Below, piece after piece: positions 1 to 6,991 of a DNA stretch of 64,000 nucleotides. The notes beneath the pieces are model-generated. The model made no database searches. It saw only the letters and a program-made list of their open reading frames with translations, and was not told where the DNA came from. Each line of letters starts with the position of its first letter. Position 1 is the stretch's first letter. Source of the stretch: Xylophilus sp. ASV27 (lineage in GTDB: Bacteria > Pseudomonadota > Gammaproteobacteria > Burkholderiales > Burkholderiaceae_C); NCBI RefSeq assembly GCF_016428875.1, contig NZ_JAELTO010000003.1, positions 1-64,000 of the forward strand, in the 5' to 3' direction. Position numbers and translations under genes: made by a program.

Positions 1-76
<76 letters not shown>

Positions 77-448
77 CGCGCGGCGCGGCGGCGCGCGCGG
101 CTGGCGCGCATCCCCGGCATCACGCTGCTGGCCGACAGCCCCGCCGCGCCCGGCGCCGCCGGCACCTGGCCGGTGCTGCTGCTGCTGCTGCCGGACCAGG
201 CAAGGCGTGATGCGTTGCTGCGCGACCACTGGGGCGCCGGCCTGGGCCTGGGCCTGCCCTTCGTGCACGCCCTGCCGGACTACCCGCAGTACGCCGCCGC
301 CGTGCCGCCCGCCGCGCCCACAGCGCTGCCCCACGCGCGCGCGCTGGCGGCGCGCCTGCTGGCGGTGAGCAACAGCCCGTGGCTGGACGAGGCCCGCTTC
401 GAGCGGATCTGCGCCGCGCTCATCAATATTGATAGCATGAAGCCCTAG
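77..448 (+). CDS. DegT/DnrJ/EryC1-type aminotransferase, C-terminal fragment
   Basis: This is the last roughly 123 codons of a gene whose 5' part is lost at the contig edge. The residues resemble the C-terminal domain of PLP-dependent sugar aminotransferases of the DegT/DnrJ/EryC1/StrS family: a segment with a conserved Y/H-rich loop (LPFVHALPDYPQY), then a P-x-A-R-x-L-A-x-R-L-L stretch leading to a short hydrophobic motif and a terminal helix. The catalytic lysine domain is not in the window, so the family call rests on the C-terminal pattern only. The last 20 bases and the stop codon form the left arm of an inverted repeat, so a mobile palindromic element now supplies the C-terminus. It converges on an ABC-2 exporter operon. 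Confidence 0.55.
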   Translation, partial: RAARRRARLARIPGITLLADSPAAPGAAGTWPVLLLLLPDQARRDALLRDHWGAGLGLGLPFVHALPDYPQYAAAVPPAAPTALPHARALAARLLAVSNSPWLDEARFERICAALINIDSMKP

Positions 449-522: not shown

Positions 523-1326
523 TCAGCTCCCCGTGGACGCATAGCGGCGCAGCCCGCGCCCCCACGCCCGCAACGCCACCGCCAGGAACGCGAAGCCCGC
601 CAGCGGCGACACCAGCCCGACCCAGCCCGGCGCGCCCAGCGGGTCCGGCTTGCCCAGGATCGCCAGCGCCGGGTAATAGGCCACGCAGGCCAGCGGCACG
701 ATGAAGGTCAGCACGCGGCGGAACCACCGCGCGTACAGCGCCAGCGGGTACTGCGCCGCCTGCACGCCGCCGTAGGTGAGCACGTTGGCGATCTCCAGGC
801 TCTCCACCGTCCAGAAGGCCAGCGTTCCCTGCAAGACCAGAATGCCGAGAAACAGCGCCACGCCGCCGGCCACGGCCAACAGCGCGATCGCCACCGCGGC
901 CGGCGTCCAGGCGATGTGCGCCTGGTACGTGGCGAAGATCAGAACCCCCAGCCCCTGCAGCAGCCGGCCCGCGCGGCTGATCCGGAAGTCGTGCCCCATG
1001 AGTTGCAGCGCGAGCGGACGCGGGCGCAGCAGCAGGCGGTCGAAGGCGCCGGTGCGCAGGAACTCCGTGCCCAGCACGTCGAAGCCCCGGCCCAGCGCGT
1101 CGGCCAGCGCGAACATGCAGTTCACCAGCCCATAGAACAGCGCCACCTCGCCGATGCGCCAGCCCTGCACCTCGCCGAAGCGGTGGAACAGCGCCCACAC
1201 CGCCACCACCTCGATGCCGGTGCCGAGCAGCTGGCCCACGGTCAGCAGCAGCGCCGAGGCCGGGTAGCGCGCCTGGGAGCCGATGGAGGCCCGCACCAGC
1301 CGCAGGAACAGCGCAAGCGAGCCCAT
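523..1326 (-). CDS. ABC-2 family exporter permease subunit (second permease)
   Basis: This is a 267-residue integral membrane protein of the ABC-2 permease type, with about six hydrophobic segments across its length, and probably one of two different permeases of an exporter. I chose the ATG at 1326 (MGSLALFLRL). It begins one base after the stop of the upstream permease gene, and the longer frame only adds sequence overlapping that gene. The three genes ATPase, permease, permease form one minus-strand operon (3153 to 523) with 4-base overlap or near-abutting junctions. Sequence does not show the substrate. A stem-forming repeat follows the stop. Confidence 0.8.
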   Translation of the reverse strand: MGSLALFLRLVRASIGSQARYPASALLLTVGQLLGTGIEVVAVWALFHRFGEVQGWRIGEVALFYGLVNCMFALADALGRGFDVLGTEFLRTGAFDRLLLRPRPLALQLMGHDFRISRAGRLLQGLGVLIFATYQAHIAWTPAAVAIALLAVAGGVALFLGILVLQGTLAFWTVESLEIANVLTYGGVQAAQYPLALYARWFRRVLTFIVPLACVAYYPALAILGKPDPLGAPGWVGLVSPLAGFAFLAVALRAWGRGLRRYASTGS

Positions 1327-1327
1327 C

Positions 1328-2161
1328 TCAGCCGCCCTGGATCTGCAGGCCGCGCATCGTGCGCCCCATGGCAAGACGCCCCAGCGCCACCAGCACCACG
1401 GCCCAGAAGCCCTGCAGCCCCAGCCCGCCCAGCGCCTGCCAGCCGCTCAGTTGCCCGAAGTACAGCCGCGCCGGGATGTCCATCAGCCCGGCCAGCGGCT
1501 GCAGCAGCAACGCGGTCTGCCAGCCGTCGGGCAGCAAGGCGAGCGGCAGCAGGTTGCCCGAGAACACGATGACCACCGGCGTCGCCACGGCGCTGATGCC
1601 GCGCTCGTTCAGCGCCGCCGTCGCCGCCACGTTGAGCAGCATCACCATCGCGGCCGACAGCAGCAGCGCGAGCAGCGCAGAGAGCAGGAACGCCAGCCCC
1701 GCCGCCACGCTCACCGGCGGCTGCCAGGCCCATGCGCCGAGCCCCACGAGCGGCAGCGCGAGCATCGCAAAGGCCGCCATCAGCGCCACGCGCGGCAGCA
1801 CGCGCGCGGCGATCCAGCCGGCGCTGCGCGCGAACCACAGGGCGTAGGCGTCCACCGGGCGCAGCCGGTCATAGGCGACCGCGCCGGTGCGCACCGCCTG
1901 CGCCACCTCCGGGTCGCCCAGCCACGGCAGCAGCACCAGCAGCCCCTGCGCGAGCCAGGTGTAGGTGATGGCCTGCGCCAGCGACATCGGCGCGCCTGCA
2001 CCCGCACCGCCATAGAAGGCCGCGAACACCATCACCTTGATGCCGCCCCACCAGCACTGCGTGGCAAAGCCCGCGAGCGCGGCGCTGCGGTACTGCAGCA
2101 TCTGCAGGAAGCGCGACGTGAACGCCGCGACGTAGGGGCGCGCGCGCTCGTGCAAGCTCAC
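1328..2161 (-). CDS. ABC-2 family exporter permease subunit (first permease)
   Basis: This 277-residue membrane protein has about six predicted spans. Its N-terminal pattern (short cytoplasmic helix, then LQYRSAALAGFATQCWW) is typical of the ABC-2 permease family that works with a single ATPase and a second unlike permease. The start ATG overlaps the end of the ATPase gene by four bases, which suggests translational coupling. It is likely a subunit of an efflux or export pump in the inner membrane; the cargo is unknown. No substrate-binding protein gene lies nearby, which fits export rather than import. Confidence 0.8.
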   Translation of the reverse strand: MSLHERARPYVAAFTSRFLQMLQYRSAALAGFATQCWWGGIKVMVFAAFYGGAGAGAPMSLAQAITYTWLAQGLLVLLPWLGDPEVAQAVRTGAVAYDRLRPVDAYALWFARSAGWIAARVLPRVALMAAFAMLALPLVGLGAWAWQPPVSVAAGLAFLLSALLALLLSAAMVMLLNVAATAALNERGISAVATPVVIVFSGNLLPLALLPDGWQTALLLQPLAGLMDIPARLYFGQLSGWQALGGLGLQGFWAVVLVALGRLAMGRTMRGLQIQGG

Positions 2162-3153
2162 CCCTCGTCGGCGCCGTGCAGGGCGTAGAAGCGGGCGATC
2201 ACGGCTTCGATCGCCAGGCCTTCGAGCCGGATGTCTTGCACCGCATGCGCGCCCGCGATGCGCGCGATCAGCGCGGGCGCCGTGGTCACCGCCGGGTCGA
2301 AGTCGAGCACCAGCGTCTGCCCCTCGCGCGCGTGCACCCGCGCACCGTCCACCTGCGCCGGCAGCTCCGCGCCCTGCGCGAAATCGACCACCAGCCGCCG
2401 CTCGGCCAGCACCTGCGCGCGCAGCGCCTCCACCGGGCCGTCGGCCAGCACGCGCCCATGGCCGATGATGATCACGCGCCGGGCCAGCGCCTCGATGTCG
2501 TGCATGTCATGCGTGGTCAGCAGCACCGTGGTGCCGCGCTCGCGGTTGGCGCGGCGCACGAAGTCGCGCACCGCGAGCTTGGAGGGCGCGTCGAGTCCGA
2601 TGGTCGGCTCGTCGAGGAACAGGATGTCGGGCTCGTGCAGCAGCGCCGCCGCGATCTCCGCGCGCATGCGCTGGCCCAGCGACAGCTGCCGCACCGGCTG
2701 GTCCAGCACCCGCTCCAGGTGCAGCAGCGCCACCAGCTCGTCGCGCGTGCGGCGGTAGCGCTGCGCATCGACGCGGTAGATGTCGCGCAGCAGGTCGAAG
2801 CCGTCGCCCACCGGCAGGTCCCACCACAGCTGCGTGCGCTGGCCAAAAACCACGCCGATGCGCGCCACGTGGCGCTCGCGGTCGGCGAACGGGTCCTGCC
2901 CATCGACCTCCACCCGCCCGCCGTCGGGCCGCAGGATGCCCGCAAGGATCTTGATGGTGGTCGACTTGCCCGCCCCATTCGGCCCGATGAAGCCCAGCAG
3001 CTCGCCGCGCTCCAGCGCGAACGACACCCCCGCCAGCGCCTGCACCGTGCGATGCCGGCGCTGCACCAGGCCGCGCAGCGCGCCCAGCACGCCCGGATCG
3101 CGCTCGGACACGCGGTAGGTCTTGACCAGGCGGTCGGCAACGATCTGGGGCAT
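2158..3153 (-). CDS. ABC transporter ATP-binding protein (ABC-2 exporter)
   Basis: This 331-residue ATPase powers the two permeases encoded immediately downstream. The visible motifs are Walker A GPNGAGKST (57-65), Q-loop FGQ (103-105), signature LSLGQ (157-161, with L-G in place of the usual G-G), Walker B ILFLDEP (177-183) and the H-loop histidine (215). About 100 further residues after the nucleotide-binding domain form a C-terminal extension common in ABC-2 ATPases that include a KTYRV-type N-terminus. It is the first gene of the minus-strand operon. The upstream region holds a GC-rich repeat and a broken small ORF. Confidence 0.9.
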   Translation of the reverse strand: MPQIVADRLVKTYRVSERDPGVLGALRGLVQRRHRTVQALAGVSFALERGELLGFIGPNGAGKSTTIKILAGILRPDGGRVEVDGQDPFADRERHVARIGVVFGQRTQLWWDLPVGDGFDLLRDIYRVDAQRYRRTRDELVALLHLERVLDQPVRQLSLGQRMRAEIAAALLHEPDILFLDEPTIGLDAPSKLAVRDFVRRANRERGTTVLLTTHDMHDIEALARRVIIIGHGRVLADGPVEALRAQVLAERRLVVDFAQGAELPAQVDGARVHAREGQTLVLDFDPAVTTAPALIARIAGAHAVQDIRLEGLAIEAVIARFYALHGADEG

Positions 3154-3526: not shown

Positions 3527-4420
3527 TCACCCCCGCCCCAGCCACGCCAGCAAGCGCTGGTTGAACACGCCCTGCCCCGCCTGCCAGGCGCGCAGTTGCG
3601 CCGGGGCGATCTCGGTCTGCTGACCATCGCCCGCGCTGAGCCAGCGCTTCCACGCAGTGCGGTAGCGGTAGGACGATACGTCGCCGGTGACGTCGCTGCC
3701 GGCGAGCTGGCCGCGCAGTGCGGCGATCACGGCCTCTGCATGTTCCTCGCGCAGCAGGCCCTGGTCCCAGTTGGTGCGGACCACGTCGGGGGCGAAGGCG
3801 TCCTTGTCGATGCTGAGGTAGGTGGGCTGTGGGTTGGCGGACAGTTCGGCGCACAGGGCGGCGATGAGCGCGTTTTCATCGGCGAAGCCGCGGAAGGCGC
3901 GGCCCAGGCCGAGCCAGCGCGACCAGCCGGTGTCCACGCCCACGCTCCAGTAGCTGAGCTTGCCGGCGCGCAGGGGTGCCAGGTAGTTCTCCCAGCAGTG
4001 GCTCCGGCCGATGTCGCCCGAGGTGATGCCGGCCACGTGCACATGGGCGACCTGCGGCAGCAGCGCGACCCGGCGCACCCAGGAGCCGCAGTGCACGCCG
4101 AACGGAAAGCGCATGTTGTCGGGGTGGTTGTCCAGCACGACGATGCGCAGCGGGCGCTGCGCCGCGTGGGCCTGCGCGGCGATGCAGCGCGCGATCAGCG
4201 GGCCGCTCAGGTGGTGGAAGTCGCCGCTGCCCATGAACACGGTGCCGTGCTCGCGGAACGGCGGCATGCGCTGCTCCAGCACCTGCGCGAAGGCGCGCAT
4301 GCGCGGCAGGGCGCAGCCGAAGCGGATCGCCTCCTGCCAGTCGGCCAGCGCGATGCGCTGCTCGCCAGGCAACGGGCCGACGGAGTGGTCCAGATCGAGG
4401 ATGGCGGGCGGCGCGCTCAT
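3527..4420 (-). CDS. Arginase/agmatinase-fold (ureohydrolase-like) enzyme of unknown substrate
   Basis: This 297-residue protein has the metal-ligand pattern of the ureohydrolase/deacetylase fold: GSGDFHH (64-70, His 69 or 70), LDNHPDN (96-102, giving D97, H99 and D101) and SIDKDAF (203-209, giving D205 and D207). All six expected Mn ligands are therefore present. The spacing and surroundings differ from classical arginases, so it probably hydrolyses a guanidino, amidino or acyl-amide bond on an unknown substrate. The ATG at 4420 overlaps the stop of the upstream acyltransferase gene by four bases; longer starts lie inside that gene. The coupling suggests that the two proteins act in one pathway. 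Confidence 0.65.
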   Translation of the reverse strand: MSAPPAILDLDHSVGPLPGEQRIALADWQEAIRFGCALPRMRAFAQVLEQRMPPFREHGTVFMGSGDFHHLSGPLIARCIAAQAHAAQRPLRIVVLDNHPDNMRFPFGVHCGSWVRRVALLPQVAHVHVAGITSGDIGRSHCWENYLAPLRAGKLSYWSVGVDTGWSRWLGLGRAFRGFADENALIAALCAELSANPQPTYLSIDKDAFAPDVVRTNWDQGLLREEHAEAVIAALRGQLAGSDVTGDVSSYRYRTAWKRWLSAGDGQQTEIAPAQLRAWQAGQGVFNQRLLAWLGRG

Positions 4421-5472
4421 GCCGCCTCGCTCCATTGCCGGTCGCTCTCGAAGCGGCCGGCGAAGCGGCGGCCCAGGGCGCGCAGCAGCGGGTTGCGGAT
4501 GTAGACGGCGTGGCGGGTGAAGCTGAACCGCGCGCCGAGCTGGGCCTTCACCTCGGGGTCGGTCCAGCCGGCGACGTAGTGGCTGAGGCCGCGCCCGATG
4601 GCGTATTCGAGGTTGACCATCCAGCTCACGAAGTACAGGTTGGCTTCGCGCGCGGCGGGGTAGGCAAAGCCGATGTACTTGTCGATCAGCTTGCCGCCGT
4701 GCTCGAAGCACAGGTTCCAGCCGAGCAGCATGCCGTCGGCCGCGCGGCGGTACTCGAAGACGATGCCGCCGCTGCTCTCGTCGCGCAGCACGGCGGCGAA
4801 GAAATCGCGCGTGAGGCGGTCGAAGTGGACTTCGCTCTGCGCGTAGACGCCTTCGTATAGCGCAAAGAAGGCATCGACCAAGGCGTCATCGGCGAAGGCG
4901 GCGCCGGTGGGGATGCGGCGCACCTGCAGCCCGGCGCGGCTGCGCAGCTTGCGCTTGAGGTTCTTGCGCCGGCTGGTGGACAGGCGCGCGAGGTAGGCGT
5001 CGATGTCGGCGAAGTCGATCGTCACATAGGCCAGCGCCTGGCCTTCGACCAGGATGAAGCCCTGCTGCCGGCAGGCCTCGGCCAGCGCATCGGCAAAGAC
5101 GTTGTCCCCGGCGGTCAGCAGCGGCGACTGCCGGGGGAGGTCCTTGATGATGCTGAGCCGATGCCCCGGCGCCAGCGCGGCGCGCACCGCGGCGGGCAGC
5201 GCGGCGGCGGGCAGTTCGGGCGGGACCAGCGCGTATTCGGACACGGTGGTGCCGACGAAGGCGGTGCGGATGCGCAGCAGGCGCGCCCAATGGCGGTGCA
5301 GCGGCAGGGCGGCGGCGCGGCGCTTCAGGTCGTCGTCGGCCGTGGTCAGCAGGTCGAAGGGCGCGGCAAATGCGGGCGCGCCGACACCGGGCAGCAGCGC
5401 AAAGCCCTGCGGCGGATGGCGCAGGAAGTGCTCGATGAGCGATGGCGGTTCGAGCTGGAAGCGAAAGGTCAT
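4417..5472 (-). CDS. GNAT-fold acyltransferase, FemAB/peptidogalycan-biosynthesis-like
   Basis: This 351-residue protein has a GNAT-like core in its second half: STSRRKNLKRKLR (about 167-179) is the basic helix typical of FemAB-like acetyltransferase-6 proteins, followed by FFALYEGVYAQSEVHFDRLT, GGIVFEYR, and the IDKYIGFAYP and NLYFVSWMVNLEYAIGRGL segments. Relatives transfer acyl or aminoacyl groups onto amines, often in envelope or exopolysaccharide biosynthesis. The stop overlaps the start of the arginase-fold gene by four bases (ATGA). The 5' side carries a palindromic repeat that could act as a terminator for the upstream aminotransferase gene. The substrate is unknown. Confidence 0.65.
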   Translation of the reverse strand: MTFRFQLEPPSLIEHFLRHPPQGFALLPGVGAPAFAAPFDLLTTADDDLKRRAAALPLHRHWARLLRIRTAFVGTTVSEYALVPPELPAAALPAAVRAALAPGHRLSIIKDLPRQSPLLTAGDNVFADALAEACRQQGFILVEGQALAYVTIDFADIDAYLARLSTSRRKNLKRKLRSRAGLQVRRIPTGAAFADDALVDAFFALYEGVYAQSEVHFDRLTRDFFAAVLRDESSGGIVFEYRRAADGMLLGWNLCFEHGGKLIDKYIGFAYPAAREANLYFVSWMVNLEYAIGRGLSHYVAGWTDPEVKAQLGARFSFTRHAVYIRNPLLRALGRRFAGRFESDRQWSEAA

Positions 5473-5620: not shown

Positions 5621-6991
5621 TCAGGCCTTCTTGGCGCGGAGCAGCAACTGCTCCAGCAGGACCAGCGCCTCGTCGATTTCGGCATGGGTGATTTCCAGCG
5701 AGGGCGCGAAGGTGATCACGTTCTTGTAGTAGCCGCCCACGTCCAGCACCAGGCCGCGCTTCTGGCCCTTGTATTCGAGCGTGCCTTCCAGGCCCAAGTC
5801 AACCATCTTGTCGAGCAGCGCGCGGTTGGGCGTGAAGCCGTCTTCGGTGCAGATCTCGGCGCGCAGGGCCAGGCCCAGACCGTCGACGTCGCCGATTTCC
5901 TTGTGGCGCTTCTGCAGGTCCTTCAGGCCGTCGAGGAAGTAGGCGCCGCGCTCGCGCACCTGCTGGCCGAAGTCGATCTCGTGCGTCATCTTCAGCACCT
6001 CCAGGCCCAGGGCCGTGCCCAGCGGGTTGGAAGCGAAGGTGCTGTGGGTGGAGCCGGGCGGAAAGATGGTGGGGTTGATCAGTTCCTCGCGCGCCCACAG
6101 TCCGCTGAGCGCGTTCAGGCCGTTGGTCAGCGCCTTGGCGAACACCAGCACGTCGGGCTGCACGCCGAAGTTCTCGATCGACCAGAGCTTGCCGGTGCGC
6201 CAGAAGCCCATCTGGATCTCATCGACCACCAGCAGCACGCCGTGCTCGTCCAGCACCTTCTTCAGGCCCTTGAAGAAGTTGGCCGGCGGCACGACGTAGC
6301 CGCCCGTGCCCTGGATCGGCTCGACGTAGAAGGCGGCGTATTCGCACTGGTTGGTTTTGGGGTCCCAGAGGGCGTGGTATTCGTTCTCGAACTTGCGGGC
6401 GAACTCACGCACGATGGAGTCCGAATACTCCTCGGCCGTCATGCCCTGGGGGCGGCGGAACGGGTACGGGAAGGGAATGAACTGCGCGCGGTCGCCGAAG
6501 TGGCCGTAGCGGCGGCGGTAGCGGTAGCTGGAGGTGATGCTCGACGCGCCCAGCGTGCGGCCGTGGTAGCCGCCCTCGAAGGCGAACATCAGGCTCTTGC
6601 CGTTGCAGGCGTTGCGCACCACCTTCAGCGAATCCTCGATGGCCTGCGCGCCGCCCACGTTGAAGTGCACCCGGCCCGCGCGGCCCCATTTCTTCTCGGC
6701 GTCCTGCGCGATCCACTTGGCCAGCTCGATCTTGGTCGGGTGCAGGTACTGGCTGGCGATCTGGGGCAACTCCTGCAACTGCCGGATCATGACCTCTTCC
6801 AGGCGCTTGTTCTTGTAGCCGAAGTTCACGGCCGAGTACCACATCTGCAGGTCCAGATAGGGCGTGCCGGCCTCGTCGTACATGTAGCTGCCCTCGCAGC
6901 CGGCGAAGATCTTGGGCGGATTGACGTAGTGGACGGTATCGCCGAAGGAACAGTATTTCGCTTCGTCAGCCAGCAGTTGGGCATTGCTCAT
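5621..6991 (-). CDS. Class III PLP-dependent aminotransferase
   Basis: This 456-residue enzyme belongs to the ornithine/GABA/diaminobutyrate aminotransferase class. Key features are NVGGAQAIEDSLK (111-123, phosphate-binding loop), FEGGYHGRTLG (138-148), VDEIQMG (256-262, with the cofactor-binding Asp 257) and the Schiff-base lysine K286 in VFAKALTNG. It transfers an amino group, probably from an omega-amine or diamine acid, to a keto acid; the exact substrate cannot be assigned. It is transcribed divergently from a GntR-family regulator, the likely controller. The 5' leader can form a hairpin over the Shine-Dalgarno sequence. A terminator-like repeat follows the gene. Confidence 0.85.
   Translation of the reverse strand: MSNAQLLADEAKYCSFGDTVHYVNPPKIFAGCEGSYMYDEAGTPYLDLQMWYSAVNFGYKNKRLEEVMIRQLQELPQIASQYLHPTKIELAKWIAQDAEKKWGRAGRVHFNVGGAQAIEDSLKVVRNACNGKSLMFAFEGGYHGRTLGASSITSSYRYRRRYGHFGDRAQFIPFPYPFRRPQGMTAEEYSDSIVREFARKFENEYHALWDPKTNQCEYAAFYVEPIQGTGGYVVPPANFFKGLKKVLDEHGVLLVVDEIQMGFWRTGKLWSIENFGVQPDVLVFAKALTNGLNALSGLWAREELINPTIFPPGSTHSTFASNPLGTALGLEVLKMTHEIDFGQQVRERGAYFLDGLKDLQKRHKEIGDVDGLGLALRAEICTEDGFTPNRALLDKMVDLGLEGTLEYKGQKRGLVLDVGGYYKNVITFAPSLEITHAEIDEALVLLEQLLLRAKKA

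What the first reader, a model, noticed from the sequence alone, without database searches (positions are those of the whole stretch)
3527..5472. Translationally coupled arginase-fold enzyme and FemAB-like acyltransferase
The 4-base overlap links a full-ligand ureohydrolase-like protein (H69/H70, D97, H99, D101, D205, D207) to a GNAT/FemAB-like transferase, neither of which fits a known pathway here. Upstream on the same strand is a class III aminotransferase and downstream an ABC-2 exporter. The set could make and export a modified amino or guanidino compound.
Basis: partly seen in the sequence, partly recalled or inferred. Interest (0 to 1): 0.55.

Follow-up and report, generated by a model that had tools for sequence, protein, structure and literature searches.

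The report
Undescribed aminolipid-type biosynthesis and export cluster
Two neighbouring genes in an environmental bacterium turn out to be two steps of a recurrent, apparently undescribed gene cluster that probably builds an amine-bearing compound, most likely a membrane lipid, flips it across the membrane and exports it.

Summary
In detail: ARG (3527-4420, -) and FEM (4417-5472, -) overlap by ATGA, and ARG keeps all binuclear-metal ligands (invariant in 49 of 49 aligned relatives). The pair is not chance: in 299 family genomes ARG occurs in 22, FEM in those 22 plus one weak hit; FEM lies directly upstream of ARG in 93 of 93 distinct loci (gathered by ARG similarity). The upstream aminotransferase belongs too; the downstream ABC-2 exporter does not. 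They are part of a patchily distributed, conserved cluster: HAD phosphatase, class III aminotransferase, alpha/beta hydrolase, FEM, ARG, two SMR/EamA proteins, often a DegT enzyme, HlyD-FtsX-TolC exporter and two-component system, sometimes KS/ACP. In the window's genome the rest sits on contig C2, cut within the DegT gene whose end opens the window. FEM's model resembles FemX, MprF and streptothricin aminoacyl-tRNA-dependent transferases; ARG's resembles ureohydrolases, with a divergent substrate loop. Rhizobium versions add a desaturase and a cyclopropane-lipid synthase; several adjoin MipA. Best reading (0.4): a regulated pathway making an amine-bearing, probably lipid, envelope compound that is flipped and exported. 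Substrates and product are inferred. Seven searches of one open-access paper library aimed at the cluster found no description.

The parts
3527..4420 (-). ARG: arginase-fold metallohydrolase, 297 aa, start ATG at 4420
   Evidence: ligands invariant in 49 of 49; AF2 pLDDT 94.5; ureohydrolases Z up to 20.4, rmsd 2.8, 229 aligned
4417..5472 (-). FEM: FemAB_like double-GNAT transferase, 351 aa
   Evidence: PF04339 45.2 bits; AF2 pLDDT 92.3; nearest solved folds are aminoacyl-tRNA-dependent transferases, Z 15.8-17.7
4417..4420 (-). ATGA stop/start overlap of FEM and ARG (translational coupling inferred)
   Evidence: sequence; 4-base overlap in 13 of 24 loci with automatically chosen starts; FEM ORFs end in ATGA or GTGA in 62 of the 91 distinct loci where the ORF was called
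5621..6991 (-). AMT: class III PLP aminotransferase-fold enzyme of an unnamed subfamily, 456 aa
   Evidence: PF00202 243 bits; under the cut-off of each of the 25 NCBIfam families shown; in 22 of 22 ARG genomes of the family sample
77..448 (+). 3' part of the DegT-family PLP enzyme of the same cluster, cut by the contig start
   Evidence: groups with relatives' DegT proteins (group c2, k21); the 5' part ends contig C2 (L162:14967-15842, +)

Best explanation
ARG and FEM are two successive steps of a conserved, two-component-regulated pathway that makes an amine-bearing envelope compound, most likely a lipid, and exports it. SHOWN by conservation: the gene set HAD phosphatase, AMT, alpha/beta hydrolase (ABH), FEM, ARG and a pair of SMR/EamA membrane proteins, usually with a DegT PLP enzyme, a HlyD-ATPase-FtsX permease-TolC exporter and a sensor kinase/response regulator; KS+ACP, or a fatty acid desaturase plus cyclopropane-lipid synthase, in some lineages. 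INFERRED chemistry: HAD removes a phosphate and AMT installs an amine on a precursor (HAD-AMT-ABH is the part that is kept without ARG in three genomes); FEM, a double-GNAT transferase built like FemX and the MprF synthase domain, joins an aminoacyl group (aminoacyl-tRNA donor likeliest; acyl-ACP the alternative) to that amine or to a lipid; ARG, with an intact binuclear metal site, hydrolyses a C-N bond (guanidino or amide) of the joined product or of its donor; the SMR pair flips the product as ArnE/ArnF do for aminoarabinose lipid (recalled); the HlyD-FtsX-TolC pump carries it outwards; ABH trims it or turns it over, as hydrolases paired with MprF do (recalled). Regulation by cationic-peptide or other envelope stress is suggested by the kinase/regulator and the recurrent MipA/OmpV neighbour. 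The confidence is for the envelope aminolipid pathway as a whole; that the genes form one pathway I put at 0.95.
For: Co-occurrence and order. Cluster content in the 73 distinct loci of at least 19 kb (tblastn marker hits): FEM 73, ARG 73, AMT 65, ABH 62, SMR1 58, SMR2 58, HAD 58, DegT 56, ATPase 55, MFP 54, permease 51, OMF 51, KS 25, ACP 23. Rest of the cluster in the window's genome: L162. Compact ten-gene run RR-HK-ABH-SMR-SMR-DegT-HAD-AMT-FEM-ARG in L168. Lipid link: a desaturase and a CFA synthase inside the Rhizobium gene runs L189 and L217 (PF00487 and PF02353 tested on L189); an MBOAT O-acyltransferase two genes past ARG in Bartonella L192. An exporter quartet of the same kinds, by annotation, follows the set in Agrobacterium fabrum L215. 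FEM fold. MipA: a family found in 16 of 93 loci (PF06629 shown for one member), in L183, and by annotation in L193 and L217; P. aeruginosa MipA acts with MipB and ParRS as a polymyxin sensor (PMC10936184, abstract and passages). MprF family PF09924 in 0 of the 24 searched genomes of the window's family and 1 of 40 overall.
Against: No substrate or product was observed. DegT was not seen in L183, L184, L186 or L187, so it is not core. Three family genomes keep AMT-HAD-ABH without ARG (G040, G243, G285; G243 has two SMR-type genes and a FEM-like protein at only 29%), so ARG is a module, not indispensable. Twelve of 93 loci have no AMT in the DNA held: four are under 14 kb, two (L046, L047) have AMT just past the edge, but six of about 20 kb (L088, L108, L109, L119, L123, L127) lack it. 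Bartonella L192 has AMT-FEM-ARG with no HAD, SMR or exporter within 9 kb. The set is patchy: ARG in 22 of 299 family, 3 of 369 class and 17 of 398 phylum genomes sampled. FEM has no detectable sequence relation to MprF (hhalign E 0.5), only a shared fold. The lipid reading leans on genes present in only some lineages; MipA and the kinase could be mere neighbours. HlyD-TolC pumps export many non-lipid molecules.
Confidence: 0.4

Rival explanations
1. Non-lipid natural product: the cluster makes and secretes a small amino or guanidino metabolite (peptide- or aminosugar-like), with FEM as an aminoacyl-tRNA-dependent peptide synthase like the streptothricin enzymes, ARG a tailoring ureohydrolase, and the SMR pair and the TolC pump both as exporters.
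For: FEM's best fold matches are Sbb17/Sba18 streptothricin peptide synthases, Z 17.6-17.7, tied with FemX and MprF; DegT and class III PLP enzymes suit aminosugar or diamino chemistry; arginase and GNAT genes occur in other predicted non-ribosomal peptide clusters (PMC2922099, section 7 part 1 read); HlyD-FtsX-TolC export.
Against: Desaturase and CFA synthase in Rhizobium versions, KS/ACP in others and an SMR pair point to an acyl chain; I recognised no adenylation, glycosyltransferase or tRNA-synthetase gene among the recurrent families (read by eye; Pfam for ten of them).
Confidence: 0.3
2. N-acyl lipid: FEM is an N-acyltransferase that takes acyl-ACP (like OlsB-type or bacterial ceramide-synthase enzymes, recalled) and acylates the amine made by AMT; ARG is a deacylase or amide hydrolase of the arginase fold rather than a ureohydrolase.
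For: KS and ACP genes lie in the same locus in 33 and 31 of 93 loci, in many Rhodanobacteraceae directly beside FEM; PF13480 GNAT match; ARG lacks the usual loop after SxDxD (NWDQG instead) and has Cys111 where most of the compared PF00491 proteins have His.
Against: FEM's closest solved folds are aminoacyl-tRNA enzymes; other GNATs and N-myristoyltransferases score lower, Z about 12-15, although all are one superfamily; in 12 of the 13 family genomes the best match to the cluster's KS is only 40-44% identical, as for an ordinary FabF.
Confidence: 0.2
3. Ordinary arginine or guanidine catabolism: ARG is an arginase/agmatinase variant and FEM an unrelated passenger.
For: Arginase fold and ligands.
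Against: The same genome has a separate PF00491 protein at E 1.7e-66 (L198); FEM accompanies ARG in 22 of 22 family genomes; the recurrent set holds an exporter, and I recognised no uptake or breakdown genes in it.
Confidence: 0.04

Closest known systems
MprF / lysyl- and alanyl-phosphatidylglycerol synthases with their alpha/beta hydrolases (pairing recalled)
   Same: FEM's fold (double GNAT; MprF and L-PGS/A-PGS chains Z 15.8-17.1), a presumed flippase in the set, an alpha/beta hydrolase, suspected envelope-charge role
   Different: FEM has no membrane domain and no detectable sequence similarity to MprF; SMR pair instead of the MprF membrane domain; extra HAD, AMT, ARG and exporter genes
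FemABX and streptothricin-type aminoacyl-tRNA-dependent GNAT transferases
   Same: Double-GNAT model; nearest PDB structures; an invariant C-terminal Lys, K309, in 42 of 42 recalls the FemX catalytic Lys (PMC12945691, passages)
   Different: Lys equivalence not tested residue by residue; donor and acceptor unknown; gene context differs
Ureohydrolases (arginase, agmatinase, proclavaminate amidinohydrolase)
   Same: Fold and all metal ligands
   Different: DKD..TNWDQG replaces the usual DxDxxDPxxAPGTGTPxxGG-type loop; Cys111 at the position of a conserved His; window protein just under the Pfam cut-off
arn operon (ArnBCADTEF, recalled)
   Same: DegT aminotransferase, SMR pair, amide-type hydrolase, two-component control
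   Different: No ArnA-, ArnC- or ArnT-like gene recognised among the recurrent genes; ARG has the arginase fold, not that of the ArnD deformylase (recalled)
MetRS-paralogue clusters of Iyer et al. 2010 (PMC2922099)
   Same: GNAT enzymes, ACP, condensing enzyme, alpha/beta hydrolase, sometimes arginase and PLP enzymes
   Different: Their constant members (MetRS paralogue with cupin, lysine 6-monooxygenase) were not recognised here; an SMR pair is not mentioned in the part read

Membership tests
Ureohydrolase / arginase family (PF00491) | Pfam gathering score | tested here: inconclusive
   Window protein 21.0 bits against 22; two distant relatives from like gene sets 36.9 and 30.2
Ureohydrolase / arginase family (PF00491) | arginase fold | tested here: met
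   Z 20.4, rmsd 2.8, 229 aligned to proclavaminate amidinohydrolase 1gq6; the 50 rows shown are ureohydrolase entries
Ureohydrolase / arginase family (PF00491) | binuclear metal ligands (His, DxHxD, DxD) | tested here: met
   Aligned; 49 of 49 invariant
Ureohydrolase / arginase family (PF00491) | acidic guanidinium-binding residue (Glu277 of arginase I, recalled) | tested here: inconclusive
   Position 247 is Asp in 27 and Glu in 22 of 49, after a one-residue insertion in the alignment
Ureohydrolase / arginase family (PF00491) | usual substrate loop after SxDxD, and catalytic His (His141 of arginase I, recalled) | tested here: not met
   NWDQG loop, and Cys111 at the His column, by sequence alignment with eight PF00491 proteins, one partial and one (L206) itself atypical; so I call it arginase-fold, not an arginase
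FemAB_like (PF04339) | Pfam gathering score | tested here: met
   45.2 bits against 27
FemABX / MprF aminoacyl-tRNA transferases | double-GNAT fold | tested here: met
   Sbb17 Z 17.7, rmsd 3.4, 253 aligned; MprF 7duw Z 17.1, rmsd 3.7, 254 aligned
FemABX / MprF aminoacyl-tRNA transferases | sequence family membership | tested here: not met
   No PF02388 or PF09924 match listed at E up to 1; hhalign to one MprF E 0.5
FemABX / MprF aminoacyl-tRNA transferases | use of aminoacyl-tRNA | not testable with these tools
   Needs an assay
Class III aminotransferases (PF00202) | Pfam gathering score | tested here: met
   243 bits against 30.5
Any named class III aminotransferase family of NCBIfam | curated cut-off | tested here: not met
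   Best of the 25 shown of 69 is 267.9 bits against 552
ABC-2 exporter as cluster member | conserved beside the pair | tested here: not met
   All three genes in 1 of 23 related loci

The most novel reading that the evidence does not exclude
FEM takes arginine from arginyl-tRNA and joins it to the amine-bearing lipid (or ACP-linked) intermediate made by HAD and AMT; ARG then removes urea from the attached arginyl group and leaves an ornithyl group. This would be post-attachment ureohydrolysis: a new way to make an ornithyl-type cationic lipid, by a ureohydrolase that works on a conjugate, and it would explain why FEM and ARG are inherited together.
Probability: 0.12. Interest if true: 0.85.

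Novelty: new variant of a known kind. Interest (0 to 1): 0.57.

Why it matters
The same unnamed gene set, whole or in part, recurs in Comamonadaceae, Rhodanobacteraceae, Xanthomonas, Pseudomonas, Rhizobium, Agrobacterium and Roseomonas, also on plasmids, and is annotated piecemeal as arginase, GNAT, EamA and so on. If it makes a cationic envelope lipid it would be a further route to surface-charge control in bacteria: in the window's own family MprF (PF09924) was found in 0 of 24 searched genomes. It also offers a testable function for two groups that, as far as I know, lack one: arginase-fold proteins with the NWDQG loop, and FemAB_like proteins of Gram-negatives.

Tried and rejected
Considered and rejected: chance neighbours (Fisher p 2e-32); the ABC-2 exporter as part of the set; simple arginine catabolism. 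Led nowhere: of ten paper searches, seven aimed at the cluster gave no paper that, by its listing, describes it; some searches were for background. A sequence search of FEM against PDB chains gave no convincing relative (mainly beta-2-microglobulin at E 0.07 or worse). HHalign of FEM to MprF failed. The idea that KS and ACP are core failed: they lie in 33 and 31 of 93 loci, and in 12 of the 13 family genomes (all but G096) the best KS match is 40-44% identical. Alignment A1 was spoiled because three loci were read on the wrong strand; it was dropped for A2 and A5. Alignment A4 left out the AMT of L041, whose start had been called too far in. Two first gene-calling schemes mis-called frames in this high-GC DNA; the counts come. 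Of 104 loci, 11 were second copies of a locus already held (same ARG DNA), leaving 93. The codon-based gene caller missed genes in L089, L092 and L095; tblastn found the pair in all three. Two PF00491 loci (L202, L204) gave no usable ORF and were left out of that alignment.
Full report
OBSERVATION. ARG (3527-4420, -) and FEM (4417-5472, -) are real ORFs and share the bases ATGA. FEM passes Pfam FemAB_like PF04339 (45.2 bits, cut-off 27) and Acetyltransf_6 (35.1, cut-off 22); ARG reaches 21.0 bits in PF00491, one bit short; the upstream AMT (5621-6991, -) is Aminotran_3 with 243 bits. The window is the first 64 kb of the 100-kb contig C269 of a draft genome. Its named near relatives are Xylophilus: the same-genus locus L028 and Xylophilus ampelinus L050 share contig length and ARG DNA.

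NOT CHANCE. In 299 genomes of the family ARG (E<=1e-3) is in 22, FEM (E<=1e-30) in 23 and AMT (E<=1e-150) in 25. All 22 ARG genomes have both; the extra ones are G315 for FEM (34% identity) and G040, G243 and G285 for AMT; Fisher p 2e-32 and 2e-30 (genomes of one family are related, so p overstates independence). The distribution is patchy: 5 of 6 other genomes of the genus, 3 of 369 in a class sample, 17 of 398 in a phylum sample, the window's genome counted in the last two. With the window this made 104, of which 93 have distinct ARG DNA. FEM is directly upstream of ARG on the same strand in 93 of 93, with 0 to 220 bases between hit ends; AMT is present in 81 of 93, directly upstream in 56. 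FEM ORFs end in ATGA or GTGA, as a 4-base overlap with ATG or GTG needs, in 62 of the 91 loci where the ORF was called; with automatically chosen ARG starts 13 of the first 24 loci have that overlap. These loci were chosen by ARG similarity, which favours close arrangements.

THE LARGER CLUSTER. Gene calling and clustering, Pfam and tblastn counts give a recurrent set: MtnX-like HAD-IB phosphatase, AMT, alpha/beta hydrolase (PF12146), FEM, ARG, two short EamA/SMR proteins, a DegT PLP enzyme, a HlyD adaptor, an ABC ATPase, an FtsX-type permease, a TolC-type protein and a kinase/regulator pair. In the 73 distinct loci of at least 19 kb: AMT 65, ABH 62, SMR1 58, SMR2 58, HAD 58, DegT 56, ATPase 55, MFP 54, permease and OMF 51 each, KS 25, ACP 23. 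In the window's genome these genes lie on contig C2 (L162, 15,843 bases): kinase, regulator, OMF, permease, ATPase, MFP, HAD, ABH, SMR, SMR and the first 292 or so residues of DegT up to the contig end. A DegT C-terminus opens the window (77-448, +), in the orientation that relatives lead one to expect; the junction itself is not in the assembly. The ABC-2 operon at 523-3153 lies inside the cluster region but is not conserved: all three genes in L030 only, a 42-residue fragment in L027, of 23 loci.

VARIANTS. L168 is a compact run RR-HK-ABH-SMR-SMR-DegT-HAD-AMT-FEM-ARG. Many Rhodanobacteraceae and Xanthomonas sacchari have KS and ACP beside FEM. L183 and L184 (unnamed, same class; I take them for Pseudomonas-like) and L186 (same phylum, another class) keep HAD, AMT, ABH, SMR, SMR, ARG and FEM in another order, with no DegT seen; the ARG and FEM of L183 are true relatives of the window's (hhalign E 1e-33 and 6e-27). 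Plasmids of Rhizobium (L189, L217) add a fatty acid desaturase and a cyclopropane-lipid synthase within the run; Agrobacterium L215 has an exporter quartet of the same kinds by annotation; L183, L193 and L217 adjoin MipA. In Roseomonas L191 and Aureimonas L216 a HemL-like enzyme, divergent from HAD, stands where AMT is expected (24% identical to AMT over 274 columns for L191). Bartonella L192 has AMT-FEM-ARG without HAD, SMR or exporter within 9 kb, and an MBOAT O-acyltransferase two genes on. Three family genomes keep HAD-AMT-ABH without ARG (L210-L212; L211 with two SMR-type genes and a FEM-like protein at 29%; L212 with an ACP gene). So the set looks modular: HAD-AMT-ABH plus an ARG/FEM/SMR module. 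Against a strict core, 12 of 93 loci have no AMT in the DNA held, six of them about 20 kb long. In plasmids ARG has matches in 47 records (49 with the L183 protein) and AMT at E<=1e-100 in 34.

WHAT THE PROTEINS ARE. ARG: AF2 model pLDDT 94.5; Foldseek's best PDB hits are agmatinases (E about 1e-8, TM about 0.5); VIA-align Z 20.4, rmsd 2.8, 229 aligned with proclavaminate amidinohydrolase. Aligned with eight PF00491 proteins, H69, D97, H99, D101, D205 and D207 fall on the metal ligands; position 247, near the guanidinium-binding Glu, is Asp in 27 and Glu in 22 of 49; but Cys111 falls on a conserved His, and NWDQG replaces the usual loop. So: arginase fold, intact metal site, altered substrate pocket. 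FEM: pLDDT 92.3; best matches are streptothricin Sbb17 (Z 17.7, rmsd 3.4, 253 aligned), FemX (Z 17.1, rmsd 4.7, 275) and MprF (Z 17.1, rmsd 3.7, 254), above other GNATs and N-myristoyltransferases at about 12-15; no sequence similarity to MprF. K309 is invariant in 42 of 42 and is kept in L183; that it matches the FemX catalytic Lys (described in PMC12945691, passages read) is a guess. AMT is 73-96% identical to the window's in 20 relatives and reaches no cut-off among the 25 of 69 NCBIfam families shown.

MECHANISM. The best-supported reading is in Best explanation. Shown: conservation, order, folds of the models, metal ligands. Inferred: phosphate removal and amination (HAD, AMT), aminoacyl transfer (FEM), C-N hydrolysis (ARG), flipping (SMR pair), export (pump), control by envelope stress. 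The lipid inference rests on the Rhizobium desaturase and CFA synthase, on KS/ACP, and on the SMR pair; the charge-control inference rests on the MprF-like fold, the kinase and MipA, whose P. aeruginosa relative is proposed to sense polymyxins (PMC10936184, abstract and passages). The BesRS envelope-stress regulon of Burkholderia thailandensis also holds a MipA/OmpV gene (PMC9426598, passages).

KNOWN OR NEW. Seven searches of a 5.39-million-paper open-access library aimed at the cluster gave no paper whose listing describes it, nor did three background searches; most subscription papers and all bioRxiv preprints are missing there. The nearest idea found is Iyer et al. 2010 (PMC2922099, section 7 part 1 and passages read): predicted peptide clusters that can hold GNAT enzymes, ACP, condensing enzymes, hydrolases and arginase, but built round a MetRS paralogue. 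I therefore file this as a new variant of a known kind: known enzyme families in an apparently undescribed, recurrent pathway.

Noticed in passing
window 1-76: A run of C and T followed by what I recall as the Nextera transposase mosaic-end sequence (58-76): assembly artefact at the contig start, inside the DegT gene.
   Followed up: partly
window 523-3153: Three-gene ABC-2 exporter within the cluster region; among 23 related loci complete only in L030, with a 42-residue, 95% identical remnant in L027:15691-15816.
   Followed up: partly
L191:7469-8812, L216:6538-7875: A HemL-like class III enzyme stands where AMT is expected in the Roseomonas and Aureimonas clusters.
   Followed up: partly
L213:9206-10159: A FEM-like protein (31-34% identical) without ARG, next to two small SMR-type genes, in G315.
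   Followed up: partly
L192:6413-9885: AMT-FEM-ARG on a plasmid of a bat Bartonella without most of the cluster nearby, and with an MBOAT O-acyltransferase two genes on.
   Followed up: no
L151, L157: HAD phosphatase matches in G203 and G308 contain one in-frame TGA within the matched stretch; not examined, perhaps only past the gene end.
   Followed up: no
L214: The one MprF found among 40 relatives (G030) has directly downstream an ORF that I take, by eye, for a secreted alpha/beta hydrolase.
   Followed up: no
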